From the NCBI RefSeq assembly GCF_000374425.1, contig NZ_KB894356.1, positions 62,001 through 126,000 on the forward strand: 64,000 bases of DNA. Direction: 5' to 3'. Position numbers and translations under genes: made by a program. How positions within the stretch are numbered: the stretch's first letter is position 1; the number at the start of each line of letters is the position of its first letter. This document shows positions 18,551 through 37,195 of the stretch, piece by piece. The notes under the pieces were generated by a model. That model was not told the DNA's origin. It made no database searches and saw only the letters and a program-made list of their open reading frames with translations. This DNA comes from Acinetobacter tjernbergiae DSM 14971 = CIP 107465. GTDB lineage: Bacteria; Pseudomonadota; Gammaproteobacteria; Pseudomonadales; Moraxellaceae.

Positions 18551-18730
18551 TCATTTATAAGCTAACTCTTGAATTTCTTTCTTATGCTGTTGAATGACAC
18601 GTTTTGCACTATGCATTACAACACGCTTTGTTGCCTCGTTGTCATCAAAAGGAATTGATAATGGTTGACCAGCCATCGCTGAACGTGGCTTTCTATTTTC
18701 AATTTTAAAATCACTTAAACGTTTAGTCAT
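18551..18730 (-). CDS. antitoxin partner of Doc
   Basis: A 59-residue basic protein starting MTKRLSDFKIENRKPRSAMA. The frame is open from 18763, but ATG at 18730 follows AGGAAGAGG and is the likely start. Its stop overlaps the start of the doc gene (ATGA), the coupling seen in antitoxin-toxin operons. The sequence does not show a clear Phd DNA-binding fold, so the call rests mainly on position and size. With the toxin destroyed, the antitoxin gene remains intact and may be an orphan under relaxed selection. Confidence 0.7.
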   Translation of the reverse strand: MTKRLSDFKIENRKPRSAMAGQPLSIPFDDNEATKRVVMHSAKRVIQQHKKEIQELAYK

Positions 18731-18794
18731 AGTCCTCTTCCTATCAGGTGTTTCTATATACATTCATTTTAACATTGAATAGACTAACCGACAC

Positions 18795-20819
18795 TCATTT
18801 CACAAAGTCTTGGTAATCTAACTCAAACAAATCAAGCATCTTTTTCTCATGATCTAGGATTTGTTCTTTTTTCCAAACTTTTTCTTCTTCAAGCGTTTGA
18901 ATCATCAAATACAATTTAAGGGTATCAATTTTACCCTTCCTTATCTCAGGCATAAAATAATCACGTTTAGCACTTGGCAAGCGATTCCCTATGCTTGAAT
19001 TTTTACTTGAACTAATGAGACACAAGTTCCCAAAGCGATGTAAATTTTCATGATCTAATTTATCACGCTCTCCCTCTATCTGTTGTGCATAAAAATGCTC
19101 AACCGAACTCCGTTGCGTAAATTTAAAGTTTTTGATTACCTTATCATTGCTATTTTCCGCATCACAATAAATCAAGAAATCCAAATAGTTAAAGACAAAA
19201 TTATTTTCAATATTGCCAAAACTTATTTTTCGCATTAATTGATTGATTTTTAAATCATCGATTGCGGAAGTGCCATAAAGCAAATCAAAATAATCAATCT
19301 GTTCTGAACTTAAATATCTCTGAAAAATAAACTTTCTCGCTAAATGTTGTAATGCATTAAAATAGTCAGACTCAGTGCGATCAGTATTATGATAAAGCCA
19401 ATACAGTGCACCATTTAACCAATATTTATAAGACAAGGTGGGAGTGGATACATGAAATGCTGTCATCAATAGTAGAATTCTTTGAGCAATATCCGTGCTA
19501 TTTCCATCAAAAGTATTCACATACGAACTATTTTTTTCATATAGTTTAAGTCTCTTTATACTCCAATCATCGTTATCCGTAGAATAATCCCGTTTAATAA
19601 TATATTGATCAAATAGAAATTTACACTTAAGTAGCGTAAAAATAAAACCTTTTACATTCTCAATTATCCTTTCATGCTCTTGGTTTTCCTGCCCTTTTAA
19701 CAGAATATATTTTTGAAATTGATCAATCAGTTGCTTATCATCTAGTGCTACTTTTTCATCACCATTCCTTTGACTTATCCAAATTTGTAAAACCTGCAAT
19801 AAAAAATTCGGAAAATTAATAATGCTATTGAATCGTTCAGGCTTTTCTTCTTTAGTATCTTTATTTTTAATACGCACAGGCACTTTTTTTAACATTTCAG
19901 AAATAGATTGAAAATTGCTTTTCGAACTTGTTTGTTCTTGTGATTCTACATTTCTTCTAAAAATTTCGAGCAAGCTAGAAGCGTTTTCAGGAACAAAATC
20001 CCCCCAATCCTTTCCAAAAATCACATCACGCTGTGTTGTGGAAAAACCATATTGAACGTAACGCTCCATATTGGCAGTCGCGTTCCAAATACTCGTAAAT
20101 AGTGTCATGCTTGATGTTTTATCTGCTTCATCTTTGATTTGATTCAATACGCTCATCAATTTCGCTTTTAAAATTTCATGCTTTTCTAATTGTTCACCAC
20201 GGTTATTCATAACCTCAAAATAATGATTGAGATCAGTATCTTTCGGAACTAAAACTTGTGCGATGACTACATTTTCAAATAAATATTTGCAAAAACCACT
20301 CAAACCGCCTTGATTGATCATTTTTTCGATTGCTCGTTGCAGCAACTCAAACCCCTGAACTAAATCGGCGTTATATTCGGATAATTTTAAATGTTGTAGA
20401 TGATCGCCTCTAAGTAAAGCCTGAAAGGTTAAAGAAGACTTTGGACGACTTTCAAAGTCAAGATTGAATTGATTAAACCAAGACATATCAAGAACAATTT
20501 TTTCTTCTTTGGATAATCGCTTCAGGCAAATCGCTAACAAGGTTAAAGTGGTAAATCGTTGCTGACCATCGATAATTTCATAAGTGCCATCGCTACGCTC
20601 AAAAACAACCAACGTTCCAATATAATATTTTTTACTTCCTTGAGTCTGCCCTTGATTTAACTGATCAGGTTGCTTTTGATAATCTTGAATATCCAAAATT
20701 AACTGATCAATTTCTTTCTCACCCCAAGCATAATTACGCTGATACATCGGGATAATATAAGTCTGTTTATTCTCGAACAGGGCTTGAACCTTAAGCGCTT
20801 GGATTGACTCTGCTTTCAT
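18795..20819 (-). CDS. DUF262 protein with DUF1524-like HNH end (GmrSD-like)
   Basis: A 674-residue protein with the GmrS-type DUF262 domain at the N-terminus: YIIPMYQRNYAWGEKEID near residue 20, then YIGTLVV and EIIDGQQRFTTLTLLAI near residues 75-95, and the later FEVMNNRGEQLEKHEILKAK. The C-terminal part holds SVEHFYAQQ and LHRFGNLCLISSSKNSSIGN, the pattern of the GmrD-type DUF1524 His-Me nuclease, though the usual EH-x-x-P is EHFYA. GmrSD proteins are NTP-dependent type IV restriction enzymes that cut modified phage DNA. It starts 13 bp after a second DUF262 gene and is the last gene of the PP2C operon. A defence role is inferred. Confidence 0.82.
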   Translation of the reverse strand: MKAESIQALKVQALFENKQTYIIPMYQRNYAWGEKEIDQLILDIQDYQKQPDQLNQGQTQGSKKYYIGTLVVFERSDGTYEIIDGQQRFTTLTLLAICLKRLSKEEKIVLDMSWFNQFNLDFESRPKSSLTFQALLRGDHLQHLKLSEYNADLVQGFELLQRAIEKMINQGGLSGFCKYLFENVVIAQVLVPKDTDLNHYFEVMNNRGEQLEKHEILKAKLMSVLNQIKDEADKTSSMTLFTSIWNATANMERYVQYGFSTTQRDVIFGKDWGDFVPENASSLLEIFRRNVESQEQTSSKSNFQSISEMLKKVPVRIKNKDTKEEKPERFNSIINFPNFLLQVLQIWISQRNGDEKVALDDKQLIDQFQKYILLKGQENQEHERIIENVKGFIFTLLKCKFLFDQYIIKRDYSTDNDDWSIKRLKLYEKNSSYVNTFDGNSTDIAQRILLLMTAFHVSTPTLSYKYWLNGALYWLYHNTDRTESDYFNALQHLARKFIFQRYLSSEQIDYFDLLYGTSAIDDLKINQLMRKISFGNIENNFVFNYLDFLIYCDAENSNDKVIKNFKFTQRSSVEHFYAQQIEGERDKLDHENLHRFGNLCLISSSKNSSIGNRLPSAKRDYFMPEIRKGKIDTLKLYLMIQTLEEEKVWKKEQILDHEKKMLDLFELDYQDFVK

Positions 20820-20832
20820 TCTGATGTTCCTG

Positions 20833-22242
20833 TTAGAGATAATTTAGTTCTTTAAATAAAGTGATCAAAGGCTCAACTTTAGTGCCTTCCTGTTTATCGA
20901 CTATCGGGAGTGACCATCCGATTAGTTCACTTGGTGATTGAGCATATTTCAGTAAACTGAATATGTTCTTTTCTAAGACATAATTATCTATCGTTGCTAA
21001 TTGCACCGAATATTGACTAATACGACAGCGATATGCCCAAATAAAAATCTTTTCAATCGCTTCTGATAACCGATCTATAGCAAATTTATCGATATAAAAA
21101 ATCAATGCAGAATCAAACAAGGTTCGCACATAACGATCCCCATCCCTATTTCTTGCATCATATGAATTCAATATTTTGATAATTCTATTTGCTCGATCCT
21201 GTAGTGCCGCACCAAATATATAGACCTTCTCAGACTGTTCTTGATGATCCACCACTTTACTAATCTGTTTTTCATAGTGCTCAACCATTTCAAAAAATCG
21301 ACGACCATTAATGATCATTTGATCAAGCTGAAATGGGAAACTCATTTCTTGTCGATCTATTTGCCGTTGATATTGTGCGTTATAGTCATCAATAAAATAA
21401 TGCGCTATGCGTAATGGTTCTAAATATGGATGATGGTCTGATTGCCCAAGATGAATACCTTTAAAAAGATGCACATGATCTTTATTGAAAAATCTTGCGG
21501 ACTTTCCTCTTGACCAAAGACGAATACGGAATAGATAGTTCGAAAATAACTTTGCCAAATGAGCCGAGTCTAAACTTTCCCAATGAGCAACAGTTTGGGC
21601 TTTTAAATGTTGCTCCTGTGCAAAAAATTCTCGTAGATGATAAGCTTTTAAAAGATCATGCGGTTCTAAATCACGGCCACGTGCATTTTGTGAATCAAAA
21701 AACTGAAATGCCTCTGAAATATCATCTAAAATAAAAACCGCAACCTGACAATTATTGAGTAAAAAATCAATATCTTGTTCCGAAAAGTTTACCGAAACGA
21801 TCCGTTTAGCGGCATTAAAGTTCTGATAAATATTGTAATGGCTAATATCACTATTAAATTCTTGCACATCCATAAAGACATTAATTTGATTCGATATTTC
21901 ATTCAAAACTGTTTTCAGATCCTCTCGTTCTAAATCTAATTCTTGCTTCTGAATAACCGCCCAAACAAGGAGTATTAAAGTTAAAGTTCGTTGTTGTCCA
22001 TCCACAATATTTATATTTTTAAGGCTCGTATTATTTTTATCACGGTGTAATACGATAGTACCCAATCGATATGCAGATTTATCTTTATGTTCCTGTATAT
22101 CATTGACGAGGACATTTAAATTTTTTTCTGTCCATTTGTAAGGACGCTGATAATCAGGAATTCTGAGTTGATCTAAAATTAAGAGTAATTCTTTTACTGA
22201 CCAAATCCCTGTCTTAAATTGATCAACTTGATGCTGAGCCAT
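20833..22242 (-). CDS. DUF262 protein without nuclease domain
   Basis: A 469-residue protein with the same DUF262 hallmarks as its neighbour: LRIPDYQRPYKWTEKNLN near residue 28, LGTIVLH, INIVDGQQRTLTLILLV near residue 80 and FFDSQNARGRDLEPHDLLKA near residue 185. The C-terminal half lacks a recognisable DUF1524 HNH motif, so it may be a regulatory or sensing partner of the nuclease-bearing protein. DUF262 is a ParB/sulfiredoxin-like fold whose DGQQR motif is needed for nucleotide hydrolysis in GmrS. It lies between the winged-helix gene and the second DUF262 gene on one strand. Confidence 0.8.
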   Translation of the reverse strand: MAQHQVDQFKTGIWSVKELLLILDQLRIPDYQRPYKWTEKNLNVLVNDIQEHKDKSAYRLGTIVLHRDKNNTSLKNINIVDGQQRTLTLILLVWAVIQKQELDLEREDLKTVLNEISNQINVFMDVQEFNSDISHYNIYQNFNAAKRIVSVNFSEQDIDFLLNNCQVAVFILDDISEAFQFFDSQNARGRDLEPHDLLKAYHLREFFAQEQHLKAQTVAHWESLDSAHLAKLFSNYLFRIRLWSRGKSARFFNKDHVHLFKGIHLGQSDHHPYLEPLRIAHYFIDDYNAQYQRQIDRQEMSFPFQLDQMIINGRRFFEMVEHYEKQISKVVDHQEQSEKVYIFGAALQDRANRIIKILNSYDARNRDGDRYVRTLFDSALIFYIDKFAIDRLSEAIEKIFIWAYRCRISQYSVQLATIDNYVLEKNIFSLLKYAQSPSELIGWSLPIVDKQEGTKVEPLITLFKELNYL

Positions 22243-22284
22243 AAAAAATTATCCTAAAAATAAAATTTTTAATTGTTAAAGTTG

Positions 22285-22497
22285 TTATCTCATACCTTGA
22301 TGCAATTTATAGCCATACCCATAATCTAGAACAAAAGTTTTTGTAGATTCACAAATACTTGCTTCAATTAACTGGTTAAGTAGTTGTTCTGCATGAGAAT
22401 ACCCAATTAAAAAATGGCGTTGTAAACTCGATACAGAAACGACACCCACTTGCTCTGTGAATAATTTGGCACGTTCAAAGAGATCATCTGATTGCAT
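22285..22497 (-). CDS. small FtsK-gamma-like winged-helix protein
   Basis: A 70-residue protein. The segment LFERAKLFTEQVGVVSVSSL followed by QRHFLIGYSHAEQLLNQLIEA closely follows the FtsK gamma-domain pattern (…A…V…ISLLQR…IGY.RA..L…ME), a winged helix that binds KOPS DNA in FtsK. Here it stands alone in an operon with PP2C and DUF262 genes, 22 bp after the phosphatase and 43 bp before the first DUF262 gene. It may be the operon's DNA-binding regulator or targeting subunit (inference). Confidence 0.65.
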   Translation of the reverse strand: MQSDDLFERAKLFTEQVGVVSVSSLQRHFLIGYSHAEQLLNQLIEASICESTKTFVLDYGYGYKLHQGMR

Positions 22498-22518
22498 AAT
22501 TTCCCCATTCTCAATGAA

Positions 22519-23283
22519 TTAAATTTTTGCTCGTACTAAGACCATGCTGACATTGTCATACGCCTGTTTTGAATTTAATGACGCTTTCATATTGAGTAAC
22601 CATGTTCGAAGCTCCACATCTGCTTTTAAAGGAAGCCATTCCCCACACTCCATCACATCATGCACACCATCTGTACAAACCAATAAGGCGTCATTCTCAG
22701 TCAAATATTCTTCTGTTCTTGTAAAATCCATCACTTCATGCAAGAGATCAGCACAAAAGTATTGTAATAATGCACCATAAATACTGGCGTAGTTTTCTCC
22801 TGCTCTTAGCTCGCCACTTTCTCTTAACTGTTCAAGATAATTGTGATCTCTGGTCAGACAATGCCACTTTTGATCATGTTGGCTAAACAAATAAACTCGA
22901 CTATCGCCAAGATGTTGAATGGTCACAAAACCTTGATCGCCATCATTTTGAATGAATGCGAGTGTTGAACTTGCGCCAAAACTTTTTTTCTGATGTGCTA
23001 ATTGATCAACAAGATACTGCTGAATGGTAAATGCTTGACAAGGTTCTATCTTTTTATTTTGCATTAAAGCTTTTAAGACCGTATAGGATGCTTGCTCAGC
23101 TGCTGGACTATTGCTAATCCCATCCGCTACAGCAACACACCACTGTTCTTTTTCAGAATGGCTATATAGTTTAGTGATGAGTCCATTATGTTGAATAACT
23201 TTATTTTCAATCAATATGGCATCTTGTTGGTACTTTGACCTTGCCTTCCATGTTAGACCTTGCATTTCAAAAGTACTTATCAC
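22519..23283 (-). CDS. PP2C-family Ser/Thr phosphatase
   Basis: A 254-residue single-domain PP2C phosphatase. Metal-binding motifs are present in order: SKYQQDA near residue 18, VAVADGISNSP near residue 50, GDSRVYLF near residue 125, LLVCTDGVHDVM near residue 200 and YDNVSMVLVRA at the end. It is the first gene of the four-gene DUF262 operon. A cognate kinase is not encoded in the window. It could sense or reset a phosphorylation signal that controls the DUF262 proteins (inference). The 184 bp to its right should carry the operon promoter. Confidence 0.88.
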   Translation of the reverse strand: MISTFEMQGLTWKARSKYQQDAILIENKVIQHNGLITKLYSHSEKEQWCVAVADGISNSPAAEQASYTVLKALMQNKKIEPCQAFTIQQYLVDQLAHQKKSFGASSTLAFIQNDGDQGFVTIQHLGDSRVYLFSQHDQKWHCLTRDHNYLEQLRESGELRAGENYASIYGALLQYFCADLLHEVMDFTRTEEYLTENDALLVCTDGVHDVMECGEWLPLKADVELRTWLLNMKASLNSKQAYDNVSMVLVRAKI

Positions 23284-23467
23284 ATCGATCTCTCACTTGG
23301 CAGTGATTTCATTTTTACCAAATTCCAACAACACAATCAAGAAAAATTTAACACAACTTATTGATTAATAGAAAATTATTTATTTAAAAACTTACTTTAC
23401 GCTTTTTAATTCTTATTCATGTCTAACTATTTAAGCAAAAATGTAACAAAATATTTTTCATACTAAA

Positions 23468-24494
23468 TCATGATTTAAGACGATACCTTTGCTTAGGGCT
23501 TTTCGGCTTATCTGGAATAGTATGCTCAATCAAATCTGCTTCTATGGCAGGATTCAAGTAATTCTTTTGGAACGTTGCTCGATGAGTTAATCCAATCAAT
23601 TGCATCAATTCAGCCAAAGTATATTCTTCTTGCTTCATTGCCGAAATTAAACGCTGAACTTGGTCGCTCACTTGAGCGGTAGCATGATCGCTATCTTGAG
23701 CGGTAACATGATCGCTATCTTGAGCGGTTTCATTTGAACTGAGGATTGCATCTAGAATCATCTGCAAAATGAATTCAATAAATGGTGCTGAATCAGTACG
23801 ATCTGTACTTGCTTGTAATGCCTCATAATAGGCTTTTTGATTTTGATAGATTAGACTTTCAACTGGAATGTTTGCAAAGATTGGATTCCATCTACTCAAA
23901 ATTAACGTTTGCCAAAGCCTTCCCATTCTTCCATTACCATCTGCAAATGAATGAATAAATTCAAACTCATAATGAAATACTGAACTTTGAATCAGTGGGT
24001 GTACTTCACTGTCATTCAACCAATCGAGTAAATCAACCATCAGTCGATTGATCTGATTGGCAGGTGGAGTCATATGCATACCCGATCACCTGACATCACA
24101 CCGACACCACCATGGCGATATTGACCGACTTCATCAATCAAGCCTGTCATTAAAATTTGGTGTGCTTGTAATAAGTCTACTTCTTGGCTTGGCTGCCATT
24201 GCTGAAATGCTTCATAAGCTTTAATGGCATTACGCACTTCTTGCACTTCTTTCGGAGGTGCAATTGAGGTGCAATTACAGTCTTACCATTTAGGATCGCC
24301 GTGATCTGTTCTGTACTTAAAGTGTTTCCTTCAATCGCAAGAGACCCTTGAATGGTACGAATACGATTGGCTTTCCTTAACTTCAGACTATCCTGAATTT
24401 CCTCTAAAACAGTCAAGCGCCCTATATTCTCACTGATCTGCGCAATCAGATGAATGATTTTAGAGGTGATGGTATAAGGTGGTTGATATTTCAT
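23468..24494 (-). pseudogene. Fic-family adenylyltransferase gene, twice frameshifted
   Basis: The start MKYQPPYTITSKIIHLIAQI and the inhibitory-helix-like IQGSLAIEGNTLSTEQI are intact. At 24255-24276 an 11-bp tandem duplication (GAGGTGCAATT twice) shifts the frame; deleting one copy restores PPKEVQEVRNAIKAYEAF and onward. A second shift of one base lies near 24080, just before HMTPPANQINRLM. The catalytic motif FEFIHSFADGNGRMGR then follows, with serine where HPFx has proline. The C-terminus is a winged-helix-like tail ending SPKQRYRLKS. The gene begins one base after hsdR. Fic proteins of this group transfer AMP to targets; this copy should be inactive unless the shifts are bypassed. Confidence 0.88.
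23661..23732 (-). repeat. three 24-bp tandem repeats in the fic gene
   Basis: Three in-frame 24-bp units encode TAQDSDHV, TAQDSDHA and TAQVSDQV, a linker between the Fic domain and the C-terminal winged helix. Copy-number change would lengthen or shorten the linker by eight residues without a frameshift. Confidence 0.8.
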
Positions 24495-27668: not shown

Positions 27669-28229
27669 TTAGATAAAGTTTCGTTTAAATTTTTCATGAT
27701 TTTCAATATTGCTTTGAATATCATCGTGATTCCAGATTTGCAATTCCCAAGGAAAATAAAAATTACTTCTGTTTTTAAAGTAAATATGTAAACCGCGATA
27801 GCCTTCTTTGTCCCGCAAATACCAGTTTTTAAGGTTCAGCTCATCTTGCCAGTCATCCAGCAAATCCATCACGCTGTCAATTTCTTCAGTCGTTAAAATA
27901 ATCCGTGCACCAAAAATATCATTCAGCCAATTGTTTACAGGGTATTGGTCTTCACGAGCAGAATAGCGCTGGATTTTATCATCAATACTTTCACGGGTTT
28001 TGACGCGATAAAAATATTTGATGTCAATATCTGCGGTCATCAAGTAGTCATTAATGCTTTCGTGCAAGGTTAACCGATATTTATAGATATGCGCAGCAGG
28101 CACATGTCGAATGGTTTTAGACAAGTTAATTTTCTCAATTTTTCCTTGTTCAAAATAATCCTTGGAAAAATGATGATGCAAGCGATTGATTTCACCGATG
28201 AGTTGTTTAACTTGACTAATTTTATCCAT
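27669..28229 (-). CDS. RelA/SpoT-domain nucleotide synthetase-like protein inside the hsd operon
   Basis: A 186-residue protein with the RelA/SpoT synthetase fold only, so a small-alarmone-synthetase type. Recognisable elements are YKYRLTLHESINDYLMTADI, NWLNDIFGARIILTTEEID (the D-x-x-G-x-R element), YRDKEGYRGLHIYF-like GYRGLHIYF near residue 140, and the E-L-Q-I core at FPWELQIWNHDD. Known relatives make (p)ppGpp or, as toxins, pyrophosphorylate tRNA or make (p)ppApp. It sits 17 bp after hsdS and 59 bp before hsdR, in the slot where PrrC sits in EcoprrI. A toxin or alarm role triggered on restriction failure is inferred. Confidence 0.8.
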   Translation of the reverse strand: MDKISQVKQLIGEINRLHHHFSKDYFEQGKIEKINLSKTIRHVPAAHIYKYRLTLHESINDYLMTADIDIKYFYRVKTRESIDDKIQRYSAREDQYPVNNWLNDIFGARIILTTEEIDSVMDLLDDWQDELNLKNWYLRDKEGYRGLHIYFKNRSNFYFPWELQIWNHDDIQSNIENHEKFKRNFI

Positions 28230-35107: not shown

Positions 35108-37195
35108 ATGGAGTTAAAAGCATTTCAAGTAGAAAACTTTAGATCAATCGACCAAAGCGAATGGATAAATATTGATGATGTCACAGCGCTCATCGGAACT
35201 AACGAATCTGGAAAAACAAATTTACTTAGTGCTTTATGGAAACTTAATCCTGTAAGTAATGATGGCAAAATTAATCTTTTATCTGATGCTCCCCGAAAAC
35301 TTTATAGCCAATTAAGGGCAAGCGATAAATCAACAATTTTTATTCGTTGTAAATTTGAACTTAATGAAAATGAAGTACAGCATATTTCAAAATTAAGAAG
35401 AACGCCAATCGAAGGCTTAAAATTTACGACTGTTTGTAGAAAATATAATAGCGGATACACTGTAGATTTTCCTGATGAAAAATTATCCAATCTATCTTCA
35501 TTAATCTTTCAAAACCTAATCACATCCAAAATAGAAATTATTAAAAATTTACAATTACTTAAAAGTGAAAATGAAGAAAAAAGAGAGAAATTTCTTAATA
35601 CTTTTGAAATAATTGACTTAGAATTTCAATCTCCAATAGTGGATAAAGCCCGTCTTGAAAAGTGTCTTTCTCTATTAGAGGATATTTTTGATGAAAAAGC
35701 TCCAAAAACAAGTGAACTTACAAAAGTCTATAATGATACACATGAATTTATTTCTTCACATTTATCCAATGTCGAAAAACCTACTTCTGAAGAATTACAA
35801 AAATCAAGAAACTATATTATTGAACAACTTCCTAATTTTGTTTACTACTCAAACTATGGAAATTTAGATTCTGAAATCTATCTTCCTCACGTTATAGAAA
35901 ATCTTGAAAGAACAGATTTAGGTGCTAAAGAGTCAGCTAAAGTGAAAACACTTAAGGTGTTATTTGATTACGTAAAATTAGAGCCCAAGGATATTTTAGA
36001 TCTAGGAAGAACTGAATCTAAAGCAGATATCGATTTATCAACAGATGAGATAGAAATCAAAGCAGCTGAAAAAAAAGAACGTAGCGTCTTATTGCAATCT
36101 GCATCCACAGAACTAACTTCAAAATTCAGAGATTGGTGGAAGCAAGGTGAATATAGATTTAGATTCGAAGCAGATGGTAATCATTTCAGAATATGGGTTT
36201 CCGATGACAAACGCCCTGAAGATATTGAATTAGAAGGAAGAAGTACGGGATTACAATGGTTTTTGAGCTTTTACTTAACCTTTTTAGTTGAAAGTAAAGA
36301 TGCCCATAAAAATTCAATATTATTATTGGATGAACCTGGTCTATCCCTTCATCCTTTAGCACAGAAAGATTTATCATTATTTTTTGGTAACTTATCTAAA
36401 ACTAATCAAATTTTATATACCACGCATTCTCCATTTTTAGTTGATTCCAACCATCTTAATCAGGTAAAAGCCGTGTACATTCAGGACGATGGTACCACAA
36501 ATATTTCTTCTAATCTTAGAGCAAATGAAGGTAACCCTTCTCAAACAAAATCAATTTATCCAGTACATGCTGCATTGGGTCTAAGCGTGTCAGAAATGTT
36601 ATTCAATAATTGTACCCCTGTGTTAGTAGAAGGCCCATCAGATCAGATTTATTTATCAGCAATTAAAACATTATTAATTTCTTTTGGAGAGTTAACTCCT
36701 AAAAAGGATATCATTTTCATTCCATCTGGAGGAACACGAGGAGTTAAACCCATTGTAAGTCTTTTAACGGGGAAAAATGATGAATTGCCAATTGTTTTAT
36801 TAGATGGTGATTCTCAAGGTTCAAAAATGGCAGAAGCTCTGAGAAAAGATTTGTACCAAGACACACCTAATTCAATTCTAATAGTTTCAGAAATTATAGG
36901 AATGGATCAAGCTGAAATTGAAGATTTAATCCCACCTTCAATAATGAAAAAACTTTCAAGATACCAATTACGTTCCAACAACCCAGATTCCGATTTTGAA
37001 GATTGTTATGTTAAAGATTCACCCATTCTTAAACAATTGGAAGAATTTGCTGTTACCAATGAGATTACGCTTGAAAAAGGGTGGAAAGTTGAGTTCGCTA
37101 AACTTGTAAAAAATCATTTACTCAAAATTTCACGAGACAAAATTTCTGAGGATACTATTAGTACATGGAAAGCTCTTTTTTCTAAATTAATTTAA
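35108..37195 (+). CDS. OLD-family ATPase with TOPRIM nuclease domain
   Basis: A 695-residue protein with an SMC-like ABC ATPase split by a coiled-coil region: MELKAFQVENFRSIDQSEW, Walker A GTNESGKTN (residues 30-38), signature-like GRSTGLQWFLSFYLTF near residue 378 and Walker B SILLLDEPGLSLHP near residue 400. A TOPRIM domain follows with CTPVLVEGPSDQIYL near residue 510 and IVLLDGDSQGS near residue 560. This is the OLD/GajA layout of phage-defence nucleases. No UvrD-type GajB or reverse transcriptase gene adjoins it, so it looks like a stand-alone class 1 OLD. It has its own terminator. Confidence 0.88.
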   Translation: MELKAFQVENFRSIDQSEWINIDDVTALIGTNESGKTNLLSALWKLNPVSNDGKINLLSDAPRKLYSQLRASDKSTIFIRCKFELNENEVQHISKLRRTPIEGLKFTTVCRKYNSGYTVDFPDEKLSNLSSLIFQNLITSKIEIIKNLQLLKSENEEKREKFLNTFEIIDLEFQSPIVDKARLEKCLSLLEDIFDEKAPKTSELTKVYNDTHEFISSHLSNVEKPTSEELQKSRNYIIEQLPNFVYYSNYGNLDSEIYLPHVIENLERTDLGAKESAKVKTLKVLFDYVKLEPKDILDLGRTESKADIDLSTDEIEIKAAEKKERSVLLQSASTELTSKFRDWWKQGEYRFRFEADGNHFRIWVSDDKRPEDIELEGRSTGLQWFLSFYLTFLVESKDAHKNSILLLDEPGLSLHPLAQKDLSLFFGNLSKTNQILYTTHSPFLVDSNHLNQVKAVYIQDDGTTNISSNLRANEGNPSQTKSIYPVHAALGLSVSEMLFNNCTPVLVEGPSDQIYLSAIKTLLISFGELTPKKDIIFIPSGGTRGVKPIVSLLTGKNDELPIVLLDGDSQGSKMAEALRKDLYQDTPNSILIVSEIIGMDQAEIEDLIPPSIMKKLSRYQLRSNNPDSDFEDCYVKDSPILKQLEEFAVTNEITLEKGWKVEFAKLVKNHLLKISRDKISEDTISTWKALFSKLI

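What the first reader, a model, noticed from the sequence alone, without database searches (positions are those of the whole stretch)
18795..23283. PP2C phosphatase, FtsK-gamma-like winged helix and two DUF262 proteins form a candidate undescribed defence system
Four same-strand genes with short gaps (22, 43 and 13 bp) sit inside a defence island: a PP2C phosphatase with all metal motifs, a 70-residue protein matching the FtsK gamma DNA-binding domain, a DUF262 protein without nuclease, and a DUF262 protein with a DUF1524-like HNH end. DUF262/DUF1524 are known from GmrSD-type restriction of modified DNA; a phosphatase and a stand-alone KOPS-type winged helix as partners are not part of any system I know. 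The two DUF262 proteins may work as sensor and effector, with the phosphatase controlling activation.
Basis: partly seen in the sequence, partly recalled or inferred. Interest (0 to 1): 0.78.

Follow-up and report, generated by a model that had tools for sequence, protein, structure and literature searches.

The report
Swappable control module for DNA-cutting defences
In Acinetobacter, a phosphatase gene and a tiny DNA-binding gene form a unit that has been combined with several different DNA-cutting enzymes of kinds that act on foreign DNA, which suggests one shared control for several defence weapons.

Summary
The four genes are real, but they are not a fixed four-gene system. The DUF262 pair is of the known TgvAB/GmrSD kind (two-protein type IV restriction). 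It also occurs without the other two genes: 11 of 11 contexts checked as controls lack them. The new part is PP2C + FtsK-gamma. In 13 Acinetobacter loci this pair is followed by a DUF262 pair (5), McrBC (2), a PDDEXK_4 nuclease (3), or a fused C-terminal domain with a sub-threshold UDG match (1); 2 loci end at contig edges. DUF262 and McrBC versions share 86-91% DNA identity up to codon ~50 of FtsK-gamma, then homology stops. An 11-bp motif, AAAGCGTAAAG, lies upstream of PP2C: exact in 11 of 13 loci with FtsK-gamma, within one mismatch in 1 of 18 without. The standalone domain lacks the KOPS-reading triad (0 of 11), so 'KOPS-type' is not supported. Best reading: a portable regulatory module (operator, phosphatase, winged helix) serving interchangeable restriction nucleases. 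The exchange is shown by sequence. Regulation and phage targets are inferred.

The parts
23395..23405 (-). candidate operator AAAGCGTAAAG, about 110-120 bp before the PP2C start codon
   Evidence: exact in 11 of 13 FtsK-gamma-bearing PP2C loci; binding not tested
22519..23283 (-). PP2C-type phosphatase, 254 aa (control module)
   Evidence: (Asp-containing motifs conserved in the alignment)
22285..22497 (-). standalone FtsK-gamma-like winged helix, 70 aa (control module; residues 1-50 constant, wing and tail differ with the effector)
20833..22242 (-). TgvA-like protein, 469 aa: DUF262 + DUF7834, DGQQR at 81, no nuclease domain (effector)
18795..20819 (-). TgvB-like protein, 674 aa: DUF262 + DUF1524 (His-Me) nuclease; DGQQR at 84, H575, N598, N607 (effector)
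23468..24460 (-). Fic gene broken by a frameshift (C-terminal ORF 23468-24079); neighbour, probably not part of the module; the outer boundary is approximate

Best explanation
The window holds one version of a modular defence operon. Genes 3 and 4 (DUF262 short, DUF262-DUF1524 long) are a TgvAB-like two-protein type IV restriction effector: both DUF262 domains sense modified DNA and bind or hydrolyse nucleotide, and the His-Me nuclease of the long protein cuts. Genes 1 and 2 (PP2C and a standalone FtsK-gamma winged helix), with the 11-bp element upstream of PP2C, are a control module that has been recombined in front of different DNA-cutting effectors (DUF262 pair, McrBC, PDDEXK_4). The winged helix most likely binds AAAGCGTAAAG and sets operon expression; the phosphatase removes a phosphate, most likely on the winged helix or the effector, to set the threshold at which the nuclease is armed. 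Shown by sequence: gene content, exchange of effectors, the sharp breakpoint in FtsK-gamma, the co-occurrence of motif and FtsK-gamma, loss of the KOPS-reading triad. Inferred: DNA binding to the motif, autoregulation, the phosphatase's substrate, modified-DNA phages as targets.
For: Effector: DUF262 in both proteins, DUF1524 in one, DGQQR in both, His/Asn residues present, matching the TgvAB description (PMC11411939). Module: in 11 FtsK-gamma loci with a readable downstream side the next gene is a DUF262 pair (5), McrBC (2), PDDEXK_4 alone or after a 137-aa ORF (3), or a domain fused to FtsK-gamma (1). The genes are close or overlap: 21/42/13 bp in the window, -4/-4 in A. bouvetii, -11/-17/17 in G003. 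Exchange: in all 10 comparisons of 5 DUF262 loci with 2 McrBC loci, 86-91% nucleotide identity stops at nucleotide ~149 of FtsK-gamma, the start of the wing hairpin in the model (strands 49-56 and 60-65). Shuffling within the DUF262 version: window against G067 has dS 0.284 in PP2C but 0.004 in the short DUF262 gene; window against G051 has 0.048 and 0.214. Motif: exact in 11 of 13 FtsK-gamma loci (A. bouvetii 1 mismatch, G031 2); in 18 PP2C loci where no FtsK-gamma was found, one (A. cumulans) has 1 mismatch and the rest 2-4. The three other exact copies in the own genome lie inside ORFs. The upstream block is kept in A. modestus, which lacks Fic there. PP2C relatives outside Acinetobacter also sit by defence genes: DUF262 pairs in two Moraxella species and three genomes of an unnamed sister genus, PDDEXK_4 in two.
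Against: No experiment. The motif core was chosen after seeing it (window clade first; trimmed). It is over-represented in Acinetobacter generally (78 copies in 14 genomes against 17 for the reversed control) and as frequent in genomes without the module. A. cumulans keeps PP2C, a near-motif and PDDEXK_4 without FtsK-gamma. No kinase is in the cassette; the own genome has two Pkinase matches over the cut-off, elsewhere. The long DUF262 gene is split in G067, and PP2C is split in KCTC 92772, G410 and both Moraxella, so parts are being lost. Most FtsK-gamma loci fall in few clades, so the 13 are not independent. DUF262 pairs work without the module elsewhere.
Confidence: 0.55

Rival explanations
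1. FtsK-gamma is a targeting subunit rather than a transcription regulator: it docks on the nuclease through its wing or tail and tethers it to DNA, and PP2C switches that docking.
For: The part of FtsK-gamma that differs between DUF262 and McrBC versions is the wing and tail, which travel with the effector. In G097 the FtsK-gamma domain is fused to a larger C-terminal domain.
Against: The motif upstream of PP2C goes with FtsK-gamma whatever the effector. DUF262 and McrBC systems do without such a subunit elsewhere. A crossover near the end of a gene needs no functional reason.
Confidence: 0.2
2. Independent neighbours in a defence island: PP2C-FtsK-gamma is a separate system that shares insertion hot spots with restriction genes.
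For: Upstream neighbours also vary: type I RM, a ResIII/methylase set, a reverse-transcriptase ORF, UvrD-like helicase. The effectors exist elsewhere without the pair.
Against: Breakpoint inside the FtsK-gamma gene, overlapping genes, one fusion, and a nuclease or restriction gene next in 10 of the 11 readable FtsK-gamma loci.
Confidence: 0.2
3. The standalone FtsK-gamma activates XerCD recombination (as FtsK's gamma domain does) and mobilises the cassette.
For: Clear FtsK-gamma homology; the helix-2 region S.S..QR is kept.
Against: No pdif-like site in the window at up to 3 mismatches (the consensus is recalled, so this is weak). The proteins are found beside PP2C and nucleases at several chromosomal sites.
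Confidence: 0.04

Closest known systems
[quoted passage not shown] cholerae VPI-2; PMC11411939: abstract, passages and section 10 seen; PMC12409362: passages seen)
   Same: Two adjacent genes, both with DUF262 and DGQQR, only the second with DUF1524; often next to or inside type I RM loci, as here.
   Different: No phosphatase and no winged helix: 'phosphatase' has 0 occurrences in both main texts. Here the pair follows PP2C-FtsK-gamma and lies after hsdR, not between hsd genes. No direct sequence comparison with VC1767/VC1766 was made.
GrwAB (V. cholerae WASA strains; passages of PMC12409362 seen)
   Same: Two DUF262 proteins, one with DUF1524.
   Different: GrwB has an extended C-terminus. 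In G390 of the sister genus, PP2C lies beside a pair of about that layout (614 and 841 aa).
McrBC
   Same: AAA GTPase plus McrC downstream of the same PP2C-FtsK-gamma in A. schindleri and an A. lwoffii MAG.
   Different: Classic McrBC has no such partners (recalled). The NCBIfam matches are below their cut-offs.
KKP kinase-kinase-phosphatase module (PMC11341870, passages seen)
   Same: A PP2C phosphatase as part of an antiphage module.
   Different: KKP has two kinases next to PP2C; here no kinase is in the cassette.
FtsK gamma domain (2VE8/2VE9, 2J5P)
   Same: Sequence and predicted fold.
   Different: Standalone; KOPS-reading residues replaced.
PDC-S26 (PADLOC candidate, PDDEXK_4)
   Same: The nuclease behind PP2C-FtsK-gamma in G003 matches it at 2e-44.
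   Different: Listed as a single-gene candidate (reading of the name, recalled).

Membership tests
TgvAB / two-protein GmrSD | two adjacent genes, both with a DUF262 domain, one with DUF1524 | tested here: met
   13 bp apart
TgvAB / two-protein GmrSD | DGQQR in both; His and Asn residues of the His-Me nuclease in the second | tested here: met
   DGQQR at 81 (short) and 84 (long); H575, N598, N607 (the paper names H571 and N602 in TgvB)
TgvAB / two-protein GmrSD | embedded in a type I RM operon | tested here: inconclusive
   downstream of hsdM-hsdS-hsdR on the same strand but separated by Fic, PP2C and FtsK-gamma; no hsdM/S/R homologue found by tblastn in the contexts of G067 and G080
TgvAB / two-protein GmrSD | restricts phages with modified cytosines; both proteins needed | not testable with these tools
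   needs phage assays
TgvAB / two-protein GmrSD | homology to VC1767 and VC1766 themselves | not tested
   sequences not fetched
FtsK gamma domain | Pfam PF09397 over cut-off and winged-helix fold | tested here: met
   40.9 bits against 30.6; model pLDDT 87, best PDB match 2ve9, though at Foldseek E 0.02
FtsK gamma domain | KOPS-reading triad N1296/R1300/E1303 | tested here: not met
   S/Q/N in the window; 0 of 11 standalone proteins keep the triad, 35 of 36 host FtsK have N/R/D
PP2C phosphatase | family match and conserved metal-binding Asp motifs | tested here: met
   D21, D54 and D146 invariant, D205 and D243 at least 90% over 19 rows; motif roles recalled
KKP and other kinase-phosphatase modules | a Ser/Thr kinase encoded next to PP2C | tested here: not met
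   neighbours are FtsK-gamma and Fic; the own genome's Pkinase matches lie on other contigs

The most novel reading that the evidence does not exclude
A portable, phospho-regulated control unit (operator + PP2C + FtsK-derived winged helix with changed DNA specificity) is plugged by recombination onto different, mostly modification-dependent, restriction nucleases: a common control layer shared by type IV defences that were thought to act alone. In a sister genus a WYL regulator may take the winged helix's place beside the same phosphatase.
Probability: 0.45. Interest if true: 0.78.

Novelty: new variant of a known kind. Interest (0 to 1): 0.62.

Why it matters
Type IV restriction enzymes such as GmrSD, TgvAB and McrBC cut modified DNA, and how cells keep them from misfiring is largely unstudied as far as I know (recalled). 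A phosphatase and a repurposed chromosome-segregation DNA-binding domain, moved as a unit between unrelated nucleases, would be a general control layer for them. It is directly testable: one 11-bp site, one 70-residue protein, and natural pairs of loci with nearly the same module and different effectors.

Tried and rejected
Fic as a fourth module part: it precedes PP2C intact in G051, A. colistiniresistens, the A. lwoffii MAG and A. schindleri. It is broken in the window, reduced to remnants in G067 and absent there in A. modestus, and its synonymous divergence differs strongly from that of PP2C. Kept as a neighbour.

orf70 (18551-18763), downstream and 92-99% alike in G067, G051 and A. modestus by tblastn: no Pfam match; not followed.

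Structure of the short DUF262 protein: mean pLDDT 50 with 5 rows, unusable. Viral contigs gave no relative of PP2C or of the short DUF262; phage records gave 5 partial DUF262 matches, none covering 80% of the query; plasmids gave no standalone FtsK-gamma, only one FtsK match. Inverted repeats of the promoter: nothing beyond 7 bp. pdif sites: none. UDG identity of the fused domain: sub-threshold only (Pfam 0.036; no NCBIfam, PADLOC or PDB support).

Rows dropped before counts: PP2C loci of G120 and G160 (28-29% identity, beside a kinase) and the plasmid copy split by the record start (L082) were left out of the 31 loci; six loci with split PP2C genes or plasmid copies are in it as they stand. 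Second FtsK_gamma matches in G064 and G083 were not located. G055's lies in a 182-aa ORF with no PP2C nearby and G098's in a 782-aa ORF. G699's 145-aa frame was not followed. The AU test (p 0.018) used a group named after seeing data and does not by itself prove nesting; the rooted tree nests the McrBC versions inside the DUF262 versions with support 92/96, below the tool's star.

Full report
1. What is there. The four ORFs are confirmed at 18795-23283, minus strand, with gaps of 21, 42 and 13 bp. Pfam gives PP2C (1.9e-6), FtsK_gamma (1.7e-10), DUF262 + DUF7834, and DUF262 + DUF1524. PADLOC's matches for the two DUF262 proteins are spread over Orf5, HEC-06, SspE and mREase_IV models, i.e. the GmrSD superfamily. 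The window lies in a 3.69-Mb genome (G000:C4). Upstream on the same strand are hsdM, hsdS, a RelA/SpoT-domain ORF, hsdR, a 105-aa ORF and a broken Fic gene.

2. The effector half is known. TgvAB of V. cholerae VPI-2 (PMC11411939; abstract, passages and section 10 seen) is a two-gene system: TgvA with DUF262, TgvB with DUF262 + DUF1524, both needed, DGQQR and His/Asn residues needed, active on Tevenvirinae with modified cytosines; the paper reports 1,341 homologous operons. The window pair has the same layout and residues. Relatives of the short protein at 51-55% identity head the list of 986 plasmid records with a match of any kind, 901 of them Klebsiella. I looked at the context of 4 of these records: two Klebsiella (beside type I RM), one Vibrio and one Paraburkholderia. 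None has PP2C or FtsK-gamma within about 6 kb. In a sample of 149 Acinetobacter genomes, 7 have a homologue covering most of the short DUF262 protein at 41% identity or more: 4 with PP2C-FtsK-gamma (G000, G051, G067, G080) and 3 without (G069, G020, G079). A profile search of these three and four more distant contexts found neither gene. So the pair does not need the other two as a rule.

3. The control half is the find. PP2C of this subfamily is in 18 of 175 Acinetobacter genomes at E <= 0.001, two of these being weak 28-29% matches. In 13 loci it is followed by a standalone FtsK-gamma protein. What comes next: DUF262 pair in the window, G067, G051, A. modestus and A. colistiniresistens (the last with an IS between FtsK-gamma and the pair); McrB-like AAA + McrC in an A. 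lwoffii MAG and A. schindleri; PDDEXK_4 nuclease in A. bouvetii, G003 and A. sp. KCTC 92772 (the last two after a 137-aa ORF; KCTC's PP2C is split with a transposase ORF behind it); a C-terminal extension fused to FtsK-gamma in G097, with only a sub-threshold UDG match (0.036); contig ends in G030 and G031. PDDEXK_4 was assigned by Pfam in G003 and by similarity in the others. In G067 the long DUF262 gene is split in two ORFs. A. cumulans has PP2C and PDDEXK_4 but no FtsK-gamma. Chromosomal sites differ: beside prfC for McrBC, at pgk-DUF2237-maf for the PDDEXK_4 and G097 versions.

4. Exchange is visible in the DNA. All 10 comparisons between the five DUF262 and the two McrBC loci show 86.2-91.4% identity that ends at nucleotide ~149 of the FtsK-gamma gene. 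In the model (pLDDT 87) this is the start of the wing hairpin, so helices 1-3 are constant and wing plus tail come with the effector. Within the DUF262 version the genes are also shuffled: window against G067 has dS 0.284 in PP2C and 0.004 in the short DUF262 gene; window against G051 has 0.048 and 0.214. A rooted PP2C tree nests the McrBC versions among the DUF262 versions (92/96). Partner type changes at least 5 times on that tree, with labels that I assigned.

5. The winged helix is not KOPS-type. The residues shown to read KOPS in E. coli and V. cholerae FtsK (N1296, R1300, E1303; PMC2533119, passages; R1300 and E1303 also PMC2680272, passages) are N/R/D in 35 of 36 Acinetobacter FtsK proteins and S/Q/N, T/Q/N, Q/K/E, E/Q/D or N/Q/E in the standalone ones, S/Q/S in one. 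None of 11 keeps the triad. Instead an 11-mer, AAAGCGTAAAG (a direct repeat AAAG-CGT-AAAG), lies upstream of PP2C. I saw it first as an invariant block of the window clade, then in the upstream DNA of other clades, and then tested 31 loci: exact in 11 of 13 with FtsK-gamma, 1 mismatch in A. bouvetii, 2 in G031; of 18 without, only A. cumulans is within 1 mismatch (one of the 18, G032, ends at a contig edge where a FtsK-gamma gene could be missing). In G003, G030 and KCTC it is in the opposite orientation. Against over-reading: the 11-mer occurs 78 times in 14 Acinetobacter genomes (17 for the reversed control), as often in genomes without the module; the own genome's three other copies lie inside ORFs.

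6. Beyond Acinetobacter. A profile of the PP2C subfamily found it in 390 order-level genomes only at lower scores outside the family (best 1e-19). In an unnamed sister genus (g3) 7 genomes have it, beside a DUF262 pair (G449, divergent), a short DUF262 homologue and a DUF3584 protein (G349), a DUF262 pair of GrwAB-like layout (G390), PDDEXK_4 nucleases (G410, with split PP2C; G552, weaker), a PbeA-like helicase (G303); G484 was not resolved. There a WYL-domain protein follows PP2C (Pfam in G449; similar sequences seen by eye in three more and in M. atlantae). In Moraxella bovoculi and M. oculi the order is DUF262 short, DUF262 long, PP2C on one strand, with PP2C split. The association of this PP2C with DUF262 or PDDEXK_4 genes is thus seen in three genera. 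Standalone FtsK-gamma was found only in Acinetobacter: in 369 class-level genomes every other match at 1e-6 was in a frame of 409 aa or more, except one of 145 aa that I did not follow.

7. Mechanism. Most likely the winged helix binds the 11-mer and governs the operon, the phosphatase sets its state or the effector's, and the nuclease is the exchangeable weapon. Three of the four effector types (TgvAB-like, McrBC, and the doubtful UDG-like one) are of modification-dependent or base-excising kinds; DNA glycosylases are a known antiphage type (PMC11078745, search listing only). That theme is suggestive, not shown. The kinase, if any, would be the host's (two Pkinase genes over the cut-off).

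8. Novelty. The DUF262 pair: known kind. PP2C + FtsK-gamma as an exchangeable front end for type IV restriction: not found in my 10 searches of an open-licence library that lacks most subscription papers and preprints; so a new variant of a known kind, with a bolder reading in the section on the most novel reading.

Noticed in passing
window 27669-28229 (-): A RelA/SpoT-domain protein (186 aa, 3.5e-7, just over the cut-off) lies between hsdS and hsdR of the type I RM operon, an odd place for a (p)ppGpp-synthetase-like gene.
   Followed up: no
window 23468 to about 24460 (-): Fic gene broken by a frameshift; intact relatives in other genomes are under very strong purifying selection (dN/dS about 0.035).
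   Followed up: partly
L187-L192, L184: In the sister genus and M. atlantae a WYL regulator follows the same PP2C subfamily beside varying defence genes; this may be a parallel control module.
   Followed up: partly
L080 9525-10750, L081 4500-5748, L082: Small Acinetobacter plasmids carry a related PP2C (about 40%) behind a 121-aa protein of unknown kind.
   Followed up: no
L031, L032: TgvAB-like pairs sit beside type I RM on Klebsiella plasmids, in L031 also beside the Hhe gene; 901 Klebsiella plasmid records match the short protein.
   Followed up: partly
window 35108-37195 (+): OLD-like AAA_15 ATPase (1.5e-30) elsewhere in the island.
   Followed up: no
window 18551-18763 (-): 70-aa ORF just downstream, 92-99% alike in three other genomes with the DUF262 version, no family match.
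   Followed up: no
G003:C6:1837593-1837810 and G065:C1:3518568-3518785: Three copies of the 11-mer with the same spacing (138 and 69 bp) in two genomes, which looks like a repeat, not operators.
   Followed up: no
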